DNA of 43,732 bases, taken from NCBI GenBank assembly GCA_034439615.1, contig JAWXAT010000047.1:197984-241715 (forward strand). The letters are read 5' to 3'. Positions 5,861 through 13,217 of this stretch are shown piece by piece. Origin of the DNA: Oligoflexia bacterium. GTDB lineage: Bacteria; Bdellovibrionota; Bdellovibrionia; JABDDW01. Each line of letters begins with the position of its first letter. Position 1 is the stretch's first letter. The notes below the pieces were generated by a model. The model had not been told where the DNA came from. It saw only the letters and a list, made by a program, of their open reading frames with translations, and did no database searches. Both the position numbers and the translations under genes were made by a program.

Positions 5861-6829
5861 ATGACTATTTTGAATTTGATTTTTAACAAAAGAAACGCGG
5901 TAGCTTTTGTTACCTTTTTTTTGAGTTTGCAACTGCAAGCAGCGCCGAAGCAAATTTGGATTTACACTTCGATTTATAAAGAATTTGCTGAGCCGATTAA
6001 AAAAGCGTTTGAAGCCAATAATCCTGATACTGAAGTTCAAATTTTTCAAGGTGGTTCAGAAAAAATTCAAGCCAAAGTTGAAGCTGAACTTATTGCACAA
6101 AAACCTCAAGCCGATGTCATTCTCACCTCTGACGCTTTTTGGAGCGCTGATCTCGGAAAACGAAATCTCGCACATTCTCATAAAGGAAAACTTACAGAGA
6201 CTAATTATCATTCATTGATGATTTTAGTAGCCCACAAAGATCTCCCACTTGATCAACGACCAAAAAGCTTTAGTGATCTTACAAAACCTCAATACAAAAA
6301 TCTTATTCAAACAGGAAGCCCGCTAGAATCAGGCACTATGTTTTCAACAGTGGCTTACCTAAGCCGAAAATATGGTTGGGATTATTTTAAAAAACTCAGA
6401 GAAAACAATGTAGCCTCCAGCGGGGGGAACTCTACAGTTATTCAAAAAATTGAATCTGGTGAGAAAAAAGTCGGATGGGTTCTTTTAGAAAATGCTTTGG
6501 CTTCGCAAAAACGTGGAAGCCCCATTGAAATTATTTATCCAATCGATGGAGCAATACCAATACCAAGTGTGCAAGTAATATTAAAAGACAGTAAACAAAA
6601 AGAAACGGCTGAAAAATTTGCTGAATTTATTTTATCAAAAGAAGGCCAAGAGCTATTGCGTAATGGTTTTATGTACAGTGTACGTAAAGACGTAACAGCT
6701 CCAGAGGGTGCAAAACCAATCAAAGAAGTTACAAAAAAATCCACCCCCTGGACAGATAAAATAATCGCTGAAGTGGCTGCCGACGCAAAGAATATTAAAA
6801 AACAATTTAGCCTTATTATTTTGGAATAA
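5861..6829 (+). CDS. ABC transporter periplasmic binding protein, iron/aminoethylphosphonate type
   Basis: 322 residues from the ATG at 5861, chosen for GGGAGG six bases upstream; the longer frame from 5804 has no ribosome site. A signal peptide ends near LQLQAA. The mature protein has the class II binding-protein pattern: WIYTSIYKEFAEPI at the start, ADVILTSDAFW, then IIYPIDGAIPIPSVQVILK near residue 235, and AEKFAEFILSKEGQELL. This matches the family that includes ferric-iron, thiamine and 2-aminoethylphosphonate binding proteins. The paired tyrosines typical of ferric-binding members are not evident, and the GAIPIPS stretch is closer to organic-substrate members. The permease follows after 3 bases. 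With eutBC downstream, ethanolamine or a related C2 amine is a plausible substrate; that is inference. Confidence 0.8.
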   Translation: MTILNLIFNKRNAVAFVTFFLSLQLQAAPKQIWIYTSIYKEFAEPIKKAFEANNPDTEVQIFQGGSEKIQAKVEAELIAQKPQADVILTSDAFWSADLGKRNLAHSHKGKLTETNYHSLMILVAHKDLPLDQRPKSFSDLTKPQYKNLIQTGSPLESGTMFSTVAYLSRKYGWDYFKKLRENNVASSGGNSTVIQKIESGEKKVGWVLLENALASQKRGSPIEIIYPIDGAIPIPSVQVILKDSKQKETAEKFAEFILSKEGQELLRNGFMYSVRKDVTAPEGAKPIKEVTKKSTPWTDKIIAEVAADAKNIKKQFSLIILE

Positions 6830-6832
6830 AAT

Positions 6833-8449
6833 TTGAATTGGATTTTCATTTTCCTATTAGGAGTTTTTTTTCTTGCTCCTCTGACTGGGCTTTTAAGTCA
6901 AGTCAATGCCGAGGTGTTGCGCGAAATCTATCAAAGCCCGTCATTTCTAAAATCATTGGGTGTGACTTTATCGTCTAGTATCTCTGCAAGTCTTATTTCA
7001 GTAATAATTGGAATGCTCTTCGCAAGACAATTTGCTCACAACCTGTGGCGCTTTAAGCGCCTCCAACGTCTTATGCTACTGATTCCATATCTTGTGCCTA
7101 ATTTTATCTTAGCCATTGCCTTTGTAGTCGCGTGGAACCCAACGACGGGGCTTCTTAATTATTGGGCAGTGTTTCCGGGCGGTCTCTATGGTCTTTTCGG
7201 AATGATTTTTCTATTTTCGATCACCCATATGCCGGTGGCATTTTTACTTTTTGAAGAAAAACTCAAACGCATTGATTCATCACTCAGAGAGGCAGCAAGA
7301 CTTTCTGGTGCTTCTAATTTTAAAGTTTTTTTAAAAATTGAATTACCTCTCTTACGCCCCGCGATCATCGGCGCCTGCGGACTTTGTTTTGCTCTTAATA
7401 TCTCAGCATTTGCAATACCTGCATGGATCGGTGCACCAGAAAAAGTTTATCCCCTCACCTACAAAGTTTATCAAGCTATCCAACTTGGCGGTCTTGAAGG
7501 TCTTCCCCAAGCTGCAAGTTATTCAGTTATTTTATTTTTACTTTCACTTATCCCGTTATTTTTAGGATTTTGGCTTCAAGGAAACGAAAAGAAATATGTT
7601 CTTTTATCTGGTAAAACGGCAAAAGAATCTTCAGAGAAACAAGGCATCATTGGTTTTTTAAGTTTTCAAATATGGTTTTTTATTTCACAAACGATATTTT
7701 GGATTGCTCCACTCATGTGTTTATTCCTAAGCACAATAGTTAAGCCCGGTTGCCTTCAATCTATTGGAGTTAAGTGCTTAAATGAAATATCTTTTAGCCA
7801 TTATAAATACGTAGTTTTTGATCTTGCCGAAACAAAAGCAGGACTTCATGGAAGTTTACTTTATGGTTCATTAAGCGCACTTGTCATTGTACTCATGGCA
7901 ATTGTGAGCCTTGCCCTATTTTCTAAAAAAAATGCGCAACTAAAAACGGTAGAGACTATTCTCACTATTCCCTTAGCCACGCCAGGGGCGATTATCGCAC
8001 TAGGTTTAATTGTTGTTTATTCAGGCAAATATGGCGTGAATCTTTACAACACCCCATGGATCATCATGACAGCCTTTATTATTAAACATGCTAGTCTTGC
8101 TTTTCAGCCGTTAAGAACAGGGCTTTCAAATATTTCCCCATCACTTTTTGAAGCCGCAAGACTCAGCGGCGCAAGTTCAGCCGGTGTTTGGAGAAAAATT
8201 GTATTACCGATATTAAGACCTGAGTATTTAGGTGGGTTTTTTCTCGTACTTATTCCAATATTAGGTGAATTAACAATGTCTGTGTTTTTAACGAGTCCTT
8301 CGTTTCAATCTATCGGAACAGTTTTATTTGATCTTCAAGATTACGCCGATCATGCGTCAGCCGGAGCATTAGCAATATTACTTGTTCTACTTATTTTAAG
8401 TTTAAATGAATTAAGTCGTTTTTTAAGTCGTGGAAAATTGGGGTACTAA
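6833..8449 (+). CDS. ABC transporter permease, two fused membrane domains
   Basis: 538 residues from a TTG start, 3 bases after the binding-protein stop. Two binding-protein-dependent permease domains are fused in one chain. Each has about six hydrophobic segments and an EAA loop that contacts the ATPase: EAARLSGAS at residues 153-161 and again from residue 440, each followed by a K-I-x-L-P-x-L-R-P motif. This fused form is typical of the iron/thiamine/aminoethylphosphonate transporter family (FbpB, ThiP, PhnV-type). It would form the inner-membrane channel for the importer. The ATPase gene starts on the very next base after the stop, so translation is probably coupled. The sequence does not reveal the substrate. 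Confidence 0.88.
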   Translation: MNWIFIFLLGVFFLAPLTGLLSQVNAEVLREIYQSPSFLKSLGVTLSSSISASLISVIIGMLFARQFAHNLWRFKRLQRLMLLIPYLVPNFILAIAFVVAWNPTTGLLNYWAVFPGGLYGLFGMIFLFSITHMPVAFLLFEEKLKRIDSSLREAARLSGASNFKVFLKIELPLLRPAIIGACGLCFALNISAFAIPAWIGAPEKVYPLTYKVYQAIQLGGLEGLPQAASYSVILFLLSLIPLFLGFWLQGNEKKYVLLSGKTAKESSEKQGIIGFLSFQIWFFISQTIFWIAPLMCLFLSTIVKPGCLQSIGVKCLNEISFSHYKYVVFDLAETKAGLHGSLLYGSLSALVIVLMAIVSLALFSKKNAQLKTVETILTIPLATPGAIIALGLIVVYSGKYGVNLYNTPWIIMTAFIIKHASLAFQPLRTGLSNISPSLFEAARLSGASSAGVWRKIVLPILRPEYLGGFFLVLIPILGELTMSVFLTSPSFQSIGTVLFDLQDYADHASAGALAILLVLLILSLNELSRFLSRGKLGY

Positions 8450-9418
8450 ATGGCACATCTAAAAATAAATAATCTTACGAAATCTTATGGAGCCAATAAA
8501 ATCCTCCACGGGATTTCGCTTGAAGTACAACAAGGAGAATTTGTTTCTTTTCTTGGACCTTCGGGGTGCGGAAAAACCACAACACTTAGATGTATCGCTG
8601 GCCTAGAAACACCAGATAGTGATAGCGGAGATATTACTGTTGGCGACAAAACTCTTTCGTCACAAAAAATTTTTGTAAAACCTGAAGATAGAAATCTTGG
8701 AATGGTTTTTCAAAGCTATGCAGTTTGGCCACACATGAATGTATTTGAGAATGTGGCATTCCCCTTGAGAATGAAAAAACGATTTAATGATCTTGGGCAT
8801 AATGAAATTTCAAAAATTGTCTCCGATTCATTAGCACTAGTTCATCTCTCAGGTCTTGAAAAACGATTTGGCAATGAGCTCTCAGGTGGACAACAACAAC
8901 GTGTAGCACTTGCAAGAGCTTTGGCGATGTCACCTCAGATACTTCTTCTTGATGAACCTTTAAGTAATTTAGATGTGATTTTGCGTGAAGAATTGAGAGC
9001 GGAAATTCAAAAACTTCAAAGACATCTCAAAATGACGACCATTCTTGTGACCCACGATCAACGTGAAGCCCTTTCATTGTCAGATCGTATATTTCTCATG
9101 AACAAAGGTAAAATCGAAGCTGTGGGTACACCTGAAGAACTCTACACACGTCCTCCAACGGTCTTTGCTGCAGAGTTTTTAGTGGGTGGGCAAACCTTTA
9201 ACGACAAATCAGGAAAGCCACAGAGTTTTATTCCACGACGCTGGAAACATTACCCAAAGCCTGGTTTAGGCAGTTATGAAACACAAGTGGTTTCAAGACT
9301 CTATTTAGGGTCAGAATATGAGTATTGGGTAGAAAGCTCCCAACTCCAGGGTACTGTTAAGTTTTTTTCAGCCGAAAAACTCGAACCAGGATCCAAAGTT
9401 TATCTCACCTACCAATGA
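8450..9418 (+). CDS. ABC transporter ATP-binding protein (FbpC/PotA-like)
   Basis: 322 residues with a complete ABC ATPase core: Walker A GPSGCGKTT (36-44), Q-loop Gln88 in VFQSYAVWP, signature LSGGQ (144-148), Walker B ILLLDEP (164-170), D-loop SNLD and H-loop His202 in LVTHDQREAL. The C-terminal 80 residues after YTRPPTVFAAEFLVG look like the regulatory TOBE-type domain of importer ATPases. It powers uptake by the preceding binding protein and permease, with which it is co-directional at zero spacing. The eutB start follows 39 bases later with no terminator visible between, so the importer and eut genes are probably one transcript. Confidence 0.92.
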   Translation: MAHLKINNLTKSYGANKILHGISLEVQQGEFVSFLGPSGCGKTTTLRCIAGLETPDSDSGDITVGDKTLSSQKIFVKPEDRNLGMVFQSYAVWPHMNVFENVAFPLRMKKRFNDLGHNEISKIVSDSLALVHLSGLEKRFGNELSGGQQQRVALARALAMSPQILLLDEPLSNLDVILREELRAEIQKLQRHLKMTTILVTHDQREALSLSDRIFLMNKGKIEAVGTPEELYTRPPTVFAAEFLVGGQTFNDKSGKPQSFIPRRWKHYPKPGLGSYETQVVSRLYLGSEYEYWVESSQLQGTVKFFSAEKLEPGSKVYLTYQ

Positions 9419-9457: not shown

Positions 9458-10828
9458 ATGCGGCTTGTGAAACTCTCAACTGAACTCAAAGGTACACATT
9501 ATAATTTTCAAACCGTCAAAGAGGTTTTGGCTAAAGCCAATGAACCAAAATCTGGCGATCAGATGGCCGGTCTTGCCGCAAAAGATGCTCGTGAAAGAGT
9601 CGCAGCCAAGATGGTTCTCTCTGATATTACACTTGGTGAATTACGCGAACATCCAGTTGTGCCCTATGAAAAAGATGAGATCACGCGCCTTGCTGAAGAC
9701 AGTTTAGATCTAGATGCTTTTAATAAAATTAAAAACCAAACTGTTTCACAATTTCGAGAATGGATACTTCAAGACACAGTGAGTGGCCAAAACATTCTTG
9801 ATATTTCTCCAGGCCTAACACCCGAGATGACCTCTGCAGTTACAAAACTCATGACTAATATGGATCTTGTCGTGGGTGGTCGAAAAATTCGCGTCGTAGT
9901 AAAATGTAATTCAACACTCGGGTTAGAAGGTCGCATTTCATCACGCCTTCAAACAAATCATCCCACCGACGATGTAAAAGGAATTATCGCCGGAGCCAAA
10001 GAAGGTCTATCTTATGGCACAGGTGATGCTGTCATCGGAATCAATCCATCAACTGATCGCGTTGATAGTTGTTATGATATTTTAAAAGCTACAAAAGATA
10101 TGATGGAGCGTTGGCGCATTCCGACTCAAAATTGTGTTCTTGCACACGTGACAACACAAATGCGTGCACTTGAAAAAGGGGCTCCACTTGATTTGATGTT
10201 TCAAAGTATCGGCGGGAGCCAAATTTCAAACGAAGAATTTGGTGTAAGCATAAAACTACTTGATGAAGCCTATGACATGACACTTAAAAAAGGCACAGCA
10301 CGTGGTGATAATGTAATGTATTTTGAAACCGGTGAAGGTACAGCCTTAAGCGCAAACGGACATCATGGCGCTGATCAATTAACCATGGAAGCAAGATCTT
10401 ATGCACTCGCACGTCGTTATAAACCATATCTTGTAAATTCAGTTGTCGGATTTATTGGCCCTGAATATCTCTATGATTCAAAACAAATCATTCGCGCAGG
10501 GCTCGAAGATCACTTCATGGGGAAACTCATGGGGATCAGCATGGGTTGTGATGATTGTTACACTAACCACGCGGTGGCTGATCAAAATGATCAAGAAGAT
10601 TTAGCAGTACTCTTGGCTGCAGCCGGAGTGAATTATCTCATGAGTCTTCCCATGGGGGATGACGTCATGCTTAATTATCAATCAACAAGTTTTCATGACA
10701 ACGCAACACTGAGAACAATTTTTGGATATAAACCAACACCCGAATTTGAAACGTGGATGGAACGCATGGGTATTTGGGAAAACGGCCGCCTCACAGCAAA
10801 AGCCGGTGACCCCAGTATTTTCATGTAA
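9458..10828 (+). CDS. eutB: Ethanolamine ammonia-lyase, large (catalytic) subunit
   Basis: 456 residues, near the usual 453. With EutC and adenosylcobalamin it splits ethanolamine into acetaldehyde and ammonia. Residues known to hold the substrate in the E. coli enzyme are all present with a constant +3 offset: Arg163 and Gln165 (SSRLQTN), Asn196 (AVIGINP), Glu290 (YFETGEG) and Asp365 (SMGCDDCYTNH). Other family blocks are VLAHVTTQ, VGFIGPEYLYD, IIRAGLEDHFMGKL and LPMGDDVMLNYQ. The ATG has no strong ribosome site. No cobalamin riboswitch could be recognised in the 39 bases upstream. eutC starts 10 bases after the stop. Confidence 0.97.
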   Translation: MRLVKLSTELKGTHYNFQTVKEVLAKANEPKSGDQMAGLAAKDARERVAAKMVLSDITLGELREHPVVPYEKDEITRLAEDSLDLDAFNKIKNQTVSQFREWILQDTVSGQNILDISPGLTPEMTSAVTKLMTNMDLVVGGRKIRVVVKCNSTLGLEGRISSRLQTNHPTDDVKGIIAGAKEGLSYGTGDAVIGINPSTDRVDSCYDILKATKDMMERWRIPTQNCVLAHVTTQMRALEKGAPLDLMFQSIGGSQISNEEFGVSIKLLDEAYDMTLKKGTARGDNVMYFETGEGTALSANGHHGADQLTMEARSYALARRYKPYLVNSVVGFIGPEYLYDSKQIIRAGLEDHFMGKLMGISMGCDDCYTNHAVADQNDQEDLAVLLAAAGVNYLMSLPMGDDVMLNYQSTSFHDNATLRTIFGYKPTPEFETWMERMGIWENGRLTAKAGDPSIFM

Positions 10829-10838
10829 GTGAGAACTT

Positions 10839-11816
10839 GTGACTGAAATAGATAAAACTCAATTATCAGAATTGGTGCGAAAAGTTCTCGCTGAAGTATT
10901 AAGCGATAAGGTCACACACACTGAGCCTGTTTTAGAAAAAAAGCCAACCAGAAACTTAGCTCAAGAAAATATTGCGCGCTGGTTAGGTCATAGTTTGCAA
11001 AAAACTCAAACTCGTAACTCCACAGCTTTAAAACTACCAATCATCACATCACAAGATGATGCGAAGGCAAAAACTCAAACTCCTTCTGATAATGAGAATT
11101 TAATTCCTAATCCCAGAAAACCTGAAAAACTAACGGCCGCTTTAGAACATTCTCCCGCACGACTTGGTGTTTGGCGTGCGGGTACTCGTTACCTCACAAG
11201 TGTAGCTTTAAAATTACGAGCTGATCATGCCATTGCAAAAGATGCCGTGTATGCTGAAATGCCAGCTCACTTTGCTGAAAAAAATAATTGGGTGCCGCTT
11301 ACAACCAAGGCCACCAATAAAGAGAAGTTTTTACTACGCCCTGATTTGGGTCGACAACTCGATGATAAGAGCCTTTTACTAGTTCGCGAAAAAGCGATTA
11401 AGAACCCTGATATTCAAATAACAGTGGCTGATGGTTTGAGTTCATGGGCGGCAGAAAGATTTGCCCCTGCGATGGTTGCAGAACTTCAAAAACTTTTTTC
11501 TGAAGCTAAAATGACTGTGGGCACAATTTATTGCGTGAGATTTTCGCGCATTGCCGTTCAAGATGTCATTGGTGAAGCTGTGGGTGCAAAAGTAAGTATG
11601 ATTTTATTGGGTGAACGCCCAGGCCTTGGCACCGGCGACTCATTATCAAATTATATGATCTACGGGCCAAAAGTGGGCACTGTAAATGCCAATAAAAGTA
11701 TGATTTCAAATATTCACGCTACAGGACATACTCCCATAGATGCCGCACGCTTGACTTTTAGCATGGTAAAGAAAATGTTTGAACAAGGTTGCAGTGGAGT
11801 TAAATTAAAAATTTAA
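10839..11816 (+). CDS. eutC: Ethanolamine ammonia-lyase, small (cobalamin-binding) subunit
   Basis: 325 residues from a GTG start. The C-terminal two-thirds match EutC: SPARLGVWRAGTRYLT, DHAIAKDAV, then IAVQDVIGEAVGAKVSMIL, GERPGLGTGDSLSNYMIYGP and ISNIHATGHTPIDAARL, which build the B12 site and the contact with EutB. The protein is about 30 residues longer than the E. coli form. The extra length lies in residues 25-95, a linker rich in Thr, Gln, Lys and Asn. An amphipathic start (DKTQLSELVRKVLAEVL) could be a microcompartment-targeting helix, which is notable because eutL follows 40 bases downstream. Confidence 0.95.
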   Translation: MTEIDKTQLSELVRKVLAEVLSDKVTHTEPVLEKKPTRNLAQENIARWLGHSLQKTQTRNSTALKLPIITSQDDAKAKTQTPSDNENLIPNPRKPEKLTAALEHSPARLGVWRAGTRYLTSVALKLRADHAIAKDAVYAEMPAHFAEKNNWVPLTTKATNKEKFLLRPDLGRQLDDKSLLLVREKAIKNPDIQITVADGLSSWAAERFAPAMVAELQKLFSEAKMTVGTIYCVRFSRIAVQDVIGEAVGAKVSMILLGERPGLGTGDSLSNYMIYGPKVGTVNANKSMISNIHATGHTPIDAARLTFSMVKKMFEQGCSGVKLKI

Positions 11817-11856: not shown

Positions 11857-12513
11857 ATGGAACTCGTACCGTTAAAACCAAAAGTACTCAGCCGCCAAGT
11901 AATTCATCAAATCACTCCACAACTGGCAAAACAGTATGGCGTGAAAAATTCTAAACATGAAAGTCTGGGTCTTATTACTTGTGACTTTGATGACGCCCTT
12001 TATGTCGCACTTGATGAAGCCACCAAACACGCCAATATCGAAGTGATCTATGCGAAATCATTTTATGCAGGCAGCGGGCACTCGAGTGGCCCACTTTCAG
12101 GTGAAGTCATCGGCGTGATTTCAGGTAGTGATCCTTCTGAAGTAAAAGAGGGGCTTGATGCTACTGAAGATTGTCTTTTAAAAGAGGCTTGGTTTTACAC
12201 ATTACTTCCTGAGCAAAAAACCAACTTCTTTCCCCACGTAGTCTCAAGTGTAGGGCACTATCTTTCAAAAGTTGCAGAGGTGCCCGTTGGTTCTTCACTT
12301 GCCTATCTTATTGCTACACCAATAGAAGCTATGATTGGCCTTGATGCCGCCATGAAAGCTGCGCGAGTAGAACTTGCCAAATTTTATGGTCCACCAACTG
12401 AAACAAACTTTGCTGGGGGGCTCTTGAGCGGTGATCAAACAGAATGTGAACAAGCTGCACGAGCATTTGCTGAAGCTGTGGCTCAAGTTGCTCAAAACCC
12501 TATTACTAGATAA
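11857..12513 (+). CDS. eutL: Microcompartment shell protein EutL (tandem BMC domains)
   Basis: 218 residues, almost exactly the EutL length, with two circularly permuted BMC domains in tandem that form a pseudohexameric trimer with a gated pore. Family blocks are SLGLITCDFDDALYVALDEATK, shortened here to SLGLITCDFDDALYVALDE (about 36-54), EVIYAKSFYAGSGHSSGP, GLDATEDCL, FPHVVSSVGHYLS, SLAYLIATPIEAMIGLDAA and the PPTETNFAGGLLSG end. AAGGAT precedes the ATG. It is the last eut gene of the run, and no other shell gene (EutM, EutN, EutK, EutS types) is visible in the window. A full shell would need genes elsewhere; otherwise EutL may have a different role, such as an ethanolamine-gated scaffold. 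Confidence 0.95.
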   Translation: MELVPLKPKVLSRQVIHQITPQLAKQYGVKNSKHESLGLITCDFDDALYVALDEATKHANIEVIYAKSFYAGSGHSSGPLSGEVIGVISGSDPSEVKEGLDATEDCLLKEAWFYTLLPEQKTNFFPHVVSSVGHYLSKVAEVPVGSSLAYLIATPIEAMIGLDAAMKAARVELAKFYGPPTETNFAGGLLSGDQTECEQAARAFAEAVAQVAQNPITR

Positions 12514-12539: not shown

Positions 12540-13217
12540 GTGAGTAGTCAGTTATCTGCTGTAGCAAAAAATCTTGAGATTGTTTTTGAAAAAACGGGCA
12601 TCACCCTATCATTGACAAATGAAATGCTCGAGCAATTCGCAAAGTTTTATAAATTTTTACTTGAGTACAATAAAAAATATAATCTCACCCGCCTTACAAC
12701 TTTTGAAGAAGTTGCTGTAAAACATTTTGTTGATTGCATCTATGTTGCTCAAATTACAAAACTACCTGAGAGGCTTTTAGATTTGGGCACAGGCGCTGGG
12801 TTTCCTGGTGTTCCCCTTAAAATCGTATCCCCATCAACACGGATATTTTTAGCCGAAGGGGTTCAAAAGAAAGTTGAATTTCTAAAAGAGCTTCGCGAAC
12901 ATTTAGACCTTAAGAATTTAGACATCATCGGGAGAAATGTTGATCCTAAGATGCAGTATCCGGTCACAGGGGTTATCACGCGCGCTGTAGAACTCACCAA
13001 TGCCACACTTAAAAACGTCGTAAACTGCCTACAAACCGGTGGAAAAGTTTTATTAATGAAAACACCGGGGATTGATTCTGAAATTGATGCTGCTGTCAAA
13101 GAAATGGGACATCAGTTTAAGCTTTTAGAAAACATCGACTATCGCTTAGGCAATACAAGTCATGGACGAAAACTTGTGATTTTTGAAAAAATTAAAATAT
13201 CACCGAATATTAACTGA
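12540..13217 (+). CDS. rsmG: 16S rRNA (guanine-527-N7)-methyltransferase
   Basis: 225 residues from a GTG start. RsmG (GidB) methylates G527 of 16S rRNA using S-adenosylmethionine. The AdoMet-binding motif is LLDLGTGAGFPGVPLKI (about 79-95); upstream is FLLEYNKKYNLTRLT and VKHFVDC, and downstream are AEGVQKKVEFLKEL and the VITRAVE motif, all characteristic. The gene begins 26 bases after eutL, so it may share its transcript, although function is unrelated. Its last 18 bases overlap the end of the opposing SpoIID gene. Confidence 0.94.
   Translation: MSSQLSAVAKNLEIVFEKTGITLSLTNEMLEQFAKFYKFLLEYNKKYNLTRLTTFEEVAVKHFVDCIYVAQITKLPERLLDLGTGAGFPGVPLKIVSPSTRIFLAEGVQKKVEFLKELREHLDLKNLDIIGRNVDPKMQYPVTGVITRAVELTNATLKNVVNCLQTGGKVLLMKTPGIDSEIDAAVKEMGHQFKLLENIDYRLGNTSHGRKLVIFEKIKISPNIN

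What the first reader, a model, noticed from the sequence alone, without database searches (positions are those of the whole stretch)
11857..12513. EutL present without any other microcompartment shell gene in the run
EutL normally forms part of a shell with EutM, EutN, EutK and EutS. Here it directly follows eutC, and rsmG comes next. Also missing are the EutA reactivase and the aldehyde and alcohol dehydrogenases. Either the rest of the shell is elsewhere, or EutL works outside a shell, for example as an ethanolamine-sensing scaffold for EutBC.
Basis: partly seen in the sequence, partly recalled or inferred. Interest (0 to 1): 0.6.

Follow-up and report, generated by a model that had tools for sequence, protein, structure and literature searches.

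The report
Ethanolamine add-on to distant microcompartment
The seemingly stray shell gene eutL and its enzyme partners eutB and eutC form a small add-on cluster; the rest of the protein shell and the aldehyde-processing enzyme are encoded elsewhere in the same genome, a split layout already described for other bacteria.

Summary
A genuine EutL (218 aa) follows eutB and eutC, and no other shell gene lies on this contig. The idea that EutL works without a shell is not supported. The same genome carries a 7-gene shell locus on contig C10: CcmP-like BMC-T, EutM-like BMC-H, EutN-type pentamer, EutE-like aldehyde dehydrogenase, PduT-like BMC-T and two more pentamers. Its nearest solved relatives are mostly Haliangium ochraceum ("HO") shell proteins. 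Of 144 genomes searched in the class, only three have any shell gene. All three (three genera, two families) have the same split: an identical 7-gene order plus a distant eutBCL. EutC and the aldehyde dehydrogenase carry the same kind of encapsulation-peptide-like helix in all three. In two of the three so does DeoC (deoxyribose-phosphate aldolase), whose syntenic orthologues in shell-less relatives lack it. Best reading: eutBCL is a satellite "EUT module" that feeds ethanolamine-derived acetaldehyde into an HO-type metabolosome. Such modules are published (Sutter 2021, PMC8217296), and 15 of 16 other genomes chosen for an apparently lone eutBCL also have pentamer genes. This is a new member of a known kind. 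Moderately interesting extras are the lineage (Bdellovibrionota/Oligoflexia) and the likely second substrate, DNA deoxyribose.

The parts
9458..10828 (+). eutB, ethanolamine ammonia-lyase large subunit (456 aa)
   Evidence: Pfam EutB 686.8 bits over the full profile; NCBIfam PRK15067 above cut-off
10839..11816 (+). eutC, ethanolamine ammonia-lyase small subunit (325 aa) with an N-terminal extension
   Evidence: Pfam EutC 229.8 bits from residue 101 on; NCBIfam PRK05465 above cut-off
10863..10901 (+). encapsulation-peptide-like helix of EutC (LSELVRKVLAEVL, residues 9-21)
   Evidence: phi-x-x-phi-phi-x-x-phi-phi spacing shared with E. coli EutC and EutE and with EutC and the aldehyde dehydrogenase of all three shell-bearing genomes; absent from EutC of shell-less G069 (alignment)
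11857..12513 (+). eutL, permuted tandem BMC-domain shell protein (218 aa)
5861..9418 (+). ABC transporter (binding protein, fused permease, ATPase) directly upstream and co-directional; possible but unproven ethanolamine uptake
   Evidence: SBP, BPD_transp_1 and ABC_tran; nearest NCBIfam models are the putative 2-aminoethylphosphonate set phnS2/PhnU2/PhnT2, all well below cut-off; the ATPase also precedes eutB in G001 but not in G100

Best explanation
eutBCL is a satellite 'EUT module' of one consolidated bacterial microcompartment whose main locus (7 genes: shell proteins plus aldehyde dehydrogenase) lies on another contig, C10. EutBC, carried into the lumen by EutC's N-terminal helix, splits ethanolamine with adenosylcobalamin into acetaldehyde and ammonia. 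The co-encapsulated EutE-like aldehyde dehydrogenase oxidises the acetaldehyde to acetyl-CoA. EutL adds a tile to the shell that passes ethanolamine (or other cargo) through its gated pore. DeoC, which also has an encapsulation-like tail in this genome, probably supplies a second stream of acetaldehyde from deoxyribose-5-phosphate. Shown by sequence: gene identities, the split arrangement, its conservation and the tails. Inferred: co-assembly, encapsulation, transport role and flux.
For: (1) A full shell locus exists in the same genome: one BMC-H, three pentamers, CcmP-like and PduT-like BMC-T and a EutE-family aldehyde dehydrogenase in one operon. (2) Only 3 of 144 class genomes have BMC genes, and all three have both parts, split, with the same main-locus order. 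EutB without BMC occurs in two others, so shell and EutL go together while EutB alone does not require them. (3) The main loci of G000 and G100 (different families) share neighbours (NAD synthase, DUF2203-like protein, exonuclease), so C10 is not a contaminant. (4) EutC and the aldehyde dehydrogenase have the same tail pattern in all three genomes (6 of 6, matching E. coli EutC and EutE), and DeoC has it in the two genomes where deoC was found. The shell-less orthologues (EutC in G069, DeoC in G002 and G069) lack it, and the background rate is 3 of 37 window proteins. (5) A CobO/BtuR adenosyltransferase, to make the cofactor, is present. (6) 15 of 16 other genomes with an apparently lone eutBCL encode EutN-type pentamers, at least three each. 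(7) The arrangement is described in PMC8217296.
Against: No EutA reactivase above cut-off, no PduL phosphotransacylase, and the only PTA-domain protein is a malic enzyme, so reactivation and luminal CoA recycling are unexplained. No riboswitch at either locus and no other sign of co-regulation. In G100 the tail-like helix of EutC lies inside the extension (residue 64 of the longest ORF), not at its start. The pattern for the tails was fixed after looking at some of them. DeoC was not found in G001.
Confidence: 0.86

Rival explanations
1. Two independent systems: the HO-like shell serves DeoC (DNA sugar catabolism) only, and EutBC works in the cytosol with EutL a passenger or decaying leftover.
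For: DeoC with an encapsulation-like tail exists in the same genome, in an operon with nucleoside phosphorylases; EutB without any BMC gene exists in G069 and G110; no EutA.
Against: EutL is intact and 70-77% identical across genera; EutC keeps its tail in all three shell-bearing genomes and lacks it in the shell-less G069; EutL was not found in any shell-less class genome searched; DeoC was not found in G001, where both eutBCL and the shell persist.
Confidence: 0.08
2. EutL acts outside a shell, as an ethanolamine-sensing scaffold for EutBC.
For: EutL is separated from the other shell genes; ethanolamine binding is reported for EutL (Thompson 2015, as cited in PMC5853799).
Against: A complete shell locus is present; every shell-bearing genome of the class has both parts; most lone-eutBCL genomes elsewhere have pentamer genes too; the eutB-eutC-eutL order is also that of the E. 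coli shell operon.
Confidence: 0.03
3. The shell locus on C10 is a binning contaminant, so the genome really has a lone EutL.
For: The assembly is a 70-contig draft with 1.5% estimated contamination.
Against: G+C of C10 (38-43%) equals that of the window (36-43%); two relatives, one in the same family and one in another family, have the same two parts, and G100 shares gene neighbours of the main locus.
Confidence: 0.02

Closest known systems
Satellite 'EUT modules' of HO, SPU3 and SPU6 microcompartments (Sutter et al. 2021, PMC8217296)
   Same: EutB, EutC and a EutL-type permuted BMC-T away from the main shell locus; main locus with a pentamer triplet and a double-trimer BMC-T
   Different: EutA, named there as part of the module, is absent here; the lineage (Bdellovibrionota/Oligoflexia) is not mentioned in that paper's main text
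Haliangium ochraceum (HO) microcompartment
   Same: best solved matches of the CcmP-like BMC-T, BMC-H (among natural proteins) and first pentamer are HO shell proteins; three pentamers; aldehyde dehydrogenase in the locus
   Different: the other BMC-T is closer to PduT than to the HO one; all three pentamers sit in one locus; no class II aldolase beside pentamers 2 and 3, as confirmed in L146 and, by sequence appearance only, in some other satellite genomes
Classical eut operon (E. coli K-12)
   Same: eutB-eutC-eutL order; EutC and EutE tails; EutE-type aldehyde dehydrogenase
   Different: there the enzymes, EutA, EutG, EutH, EutJ and the other shell genes lie together; no CcmP-like BMC-T and no pentamer triplet
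SPU (sugar phosphate utilising) microcompartments
   Same: DeoC with an encapsulation-like tail as a probable acetaldehyde source
   Different: DeoC here lies in a separate nucleoside-catabolism operon; no DeoC or RpiB in the main locus

Membership tests
EutL | full-length match to EutL models and structures | tested here: met
   PRK15405 above cut-off; TIGR04502 297 vs cut-off 300; aligned residues 6-216 with 4edi and 3u27
EUT module satellite | EutB, EutC and EutL-type BMC-T together, no other shell gene, shell locus elsewhere in the genome | tested here: met
EUT module satellite | EutA present | tested here: not met
   best EutA hit 23.6 bits, below cut-off 27, partial. No EutA-sized gene was evident immediately upstream of eutB in several other lone eutBCL loci, by eye only
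HO-type microcompartment | pentamer triplet | tested here: met
   three EutN_CcmL genes in the main locus
HO-type microcompartment | double-trimer BMC-T and BMC-H of HO type | tested here: met
   best PDB hits HO-5816 (E about 1e-83) and, among natural proteins, HO-5815 (E 1e-45)
HO-type microcompartment | HO single-type BMC-T | tested here: inconclusive
   3nwg and PduT chains score above 5dih (126 vs 85 bits)
HO-type microcompartment | aldehyde dehydrogenase in the HO clade of the published tree | not tested
   no tree was built; only PRK15398 membership
Classical EUT1/EUT2 microcompartment | shell, EutA and enzymes in one locus | tested here: not met
SPU microcompartment | DeoC-type aldolase and RpiB in the main locus | tested here: not met
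   main locus has only shell genes and aldehyde dehydrogenase; DeoC is elsewhere; RpiB not searched for genome-wide
Metabolosome core | phosphotransacylase for CoA recycling | tested here: not met
   no PduL; PTA domain only in a malic enzyme
Metabolosome core | alcohol dehydrogenase for NAD recycling | not tested

The most novel reading that the evidence does not exclude
In this Bdellovibrionota-type lineage a single HO-type microcompartment is a dual-fuel acetaldehyde reactor: EutBC feeds it from ethanolamine (membrane phospholipid) and a tailed DeoC feeds it from deoxyribose phosphate (DNA), without a recognisable phosphotransacylase. That would give the HO shell, whose function is called enigmatic, a concrete role in consuming the remains of other cells.
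Probability: 0.45. Interest if true: 0.5.

Novelty: new member of a known kind. Interest (0 to 1): 0.3.

Why it matters
It removes a possible claim for a shell-free EutL. It documents a microcompartment in a lineage for which no report was found in the held literature, and it offers a natural control: EutC and DeoC carry the tails in shell-bearing genomes and lack them in the shell-less relatives examined. HO shells are a main structural model of unknown function, so tying two acetaldehyde-making enzymes to one makes that function testable.

Tried and rejected
A hydrophobic-moment test of the tails was not convincing against shuffles (fractions 0.03-0.24 for the candidate cargo); the spacing pattern was used, which is partly post hoc. 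PTA hits looked like a phosphotransacetylase but are malic enzymes. A second PF01791 hit (C15, 308 aa) is an aldolase shared with shell-less G002, with no extension. PF01923-type adenosyltransferase is absent, but the CobO/BtuR type is present. No riboswitch above Rfam cut-offs at either locus. Promoter and terminator scans are at chance level. Thompson 2015 is not held, so conservation of EutL's ethanolamine site was not tested.

Full report
What is there. The window is part of contig C47 of a 3.0 Mb, 70-contig draft genome. A co-directional run carries eutB (9458-10828), eutC (10839-11816), eutL (11857-12513) and then rsmG (12540-13217). All three Eut proteins match curated models; for EutL one of two models, TIGR04502, falls just short (297 against a cut-off of 300). 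EutL aligns end to end with solved EutL structures at E 3e-52 or better.

The rest of the shell. A search of the whole genome with the BMC domain and the EutN/CcmL domain finds a second locus at C10:22789-26199, minus strand. Its order is CcmP-like BMC-T (205 aa), EutM-like BMC-H (102), pentamer (89), EutE-family aldehyde dehydrogenase (477), PduT-like BMC-T (189), pentamer (92), pentamer (89). The closest solved chain for the CcmP-like BMC-T and for the first pentamer is a Haliangium ochraceum shell protein. So is the closest natural chain for BMC-H. The PduT-like BMC-T is nearer to PduT than to the HO protein.

Is the second locus really from this organism? Base composition is the same. Of 144 genomes searched in the class, only G000, G001 (same family) and G100 (another family) have any BMC-domain gene, and each has both parts on different contigs: the 7-gene locus in the same order and a separate eutB-eutC-eutL. 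The eutL contigs of G001 and G100 correspond, by length and match position, to records named Oligoflexia bacterium nzgw168 and Bdellovibrionales bacterium ND5_Bin_38_2. Around the main locus, G000 and G100 share an NAD synthase, a DUF2203-like gene and an exonuclease gene (identified by sequence appearance, not by a profile search). EutB also occurs in two class genomes that have no BMC gene, G069 and G110.

Cargo tails. Encapsulation peptides are short amphipathic helices. E. coli EutC and EutE carry the spacing phi-x-x-phi-phi-x-x-phi-phi near the N-terminus. The same spacing is present in EutC and in the aldehyde dehydrogenase of all three shell-bearing genomes. It is absent from EutC of G069 and occurs in 3 of 37 other window proteins; per-protein shuffles give about 1-10% (alignment). 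The pattern was fixed after some of these sequences had been seen, so it is supportive rather than a blind test. A separate hydrophobic-moment test was not convincing. In G100 the match lies at residue 64 of the longest EutC reading frame.

A second probable cargo. The genome has a DeoC (C31, 284 aa) whose Pfam match starts only at residue 69, after an extension with the same kind of helix; it is followed by pyrimidine and purine nucleoside phosphorylase genes. The syntenic DeoC of G100 has such an extension too, whereas the syntenic DeoC of shell-less G002 and G069 does not. DeoC was not found in G001, which may be a gap in that draft. Sutter and colleagues noted the same for some HO genomes: a DeoC-type enzyme elsewhere in the genome, sometimes with an encapsulation-like extension.

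Other parts of the pathway. A CobO/BtuR adenosyltransferase that could make EutBC's cofactor is present in G000 and G001, and also in G002, which has no EutB. EutA is not found above cut-off, PduL is not found, and the only PTA-domain protein is a malic enzyme. Axen and colleagues noted that the Haliangium locus and others lack recycling enzymes and proposed that recycling is not strictly required (PMC4207490). Alcohol dehydrogenase and the EutH transporter were not searched for. The ABC transporter directly upstream (5861-9418) resembles the putative 2-aminoethylphosphonate set but far below cut-off. Its ATPase also precedes eutB in G001 but not in G100; ethanolamine uptake by it is only a guess.

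How common is the arrangement? A scan of public genomes with the EutL alignment returned 80 loci. Most have aldehyde dehydrogenase or shell genes close by. A set from Myxococcales, Leptospiraceae, Planctomycetota and other deltaproteobacterial records has eutBCL (or its remnant at a contig end) with no shell gene in the flanking DNA held. Of 16 such genomes, chosen for this reason, 15 encode at least three EutN-type pentamers; the exception is G157. Several of the 16 loci lie on short contigs, so 'no shell gene nearby' is firm mainly for L055, L060, L089, L099, L100 and L101, which have about 10 kb on each side. Two of the genomes, G159 and G154, have the same 7-gene order as here. Others have pentamers 2 and 3 apart from the rest; beside them in L146 lies a class II aldolase confirmed by Pfam.

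Judgement. The eutBCL cluster is best read as a satellite EUT module of an HO-type microcompartment, a kind already published (PMC8217296). Gene identities, the split, its conservation and the tail pattern are shown by sequence. Co-assembly, encapsulation, the transport role of EutL and flux through the pathway are inferred. Within the held library no report of a microcompartment in this lineage was found from titles and abstracts of the papers that mention both; subscription papers are mostly missing from it.

Noticed in passing
L167:4997-5851 (G000:C31) and L168:4525-5325 (G100:C3): DeoC with an N-terminal encapsulation-like extension in shell-bearing genomes; the syntenic DeoC in shell-less G002 (L169) and G069 (L170) lacks it
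   Followed up: partly
window 5861-9418: ABC transporter resembling the putative 2-aminoethylphosphonate set (below cut-off), directly upstream of eutB; possible ethanolamine uptake
   Followed up: partly
L034:9009-11179 (G069): eutBC without eutL, shell or EutC tail in a shell-less class genome
   Followed up: partly
L146:8132-8950: class II aldolase (PF00596) beside pentamers 2 and 3 in a lone-eutBCL genome, as reported for type I HO satellites
   Followed up: partly
L111 (record CAMBIK010000086.1): record titled Klebsiella pneumoniae holds a satellite eutBCL, and its genome has the 7-gene HO-like locus (L143); the title looks wrong
   Followed up: no
L094 (genome G157): the one genome of the 16 with no EutN-type pentamer found; the locus lies on a short MAG contig, probably an incomplete genome
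   Followed up: no
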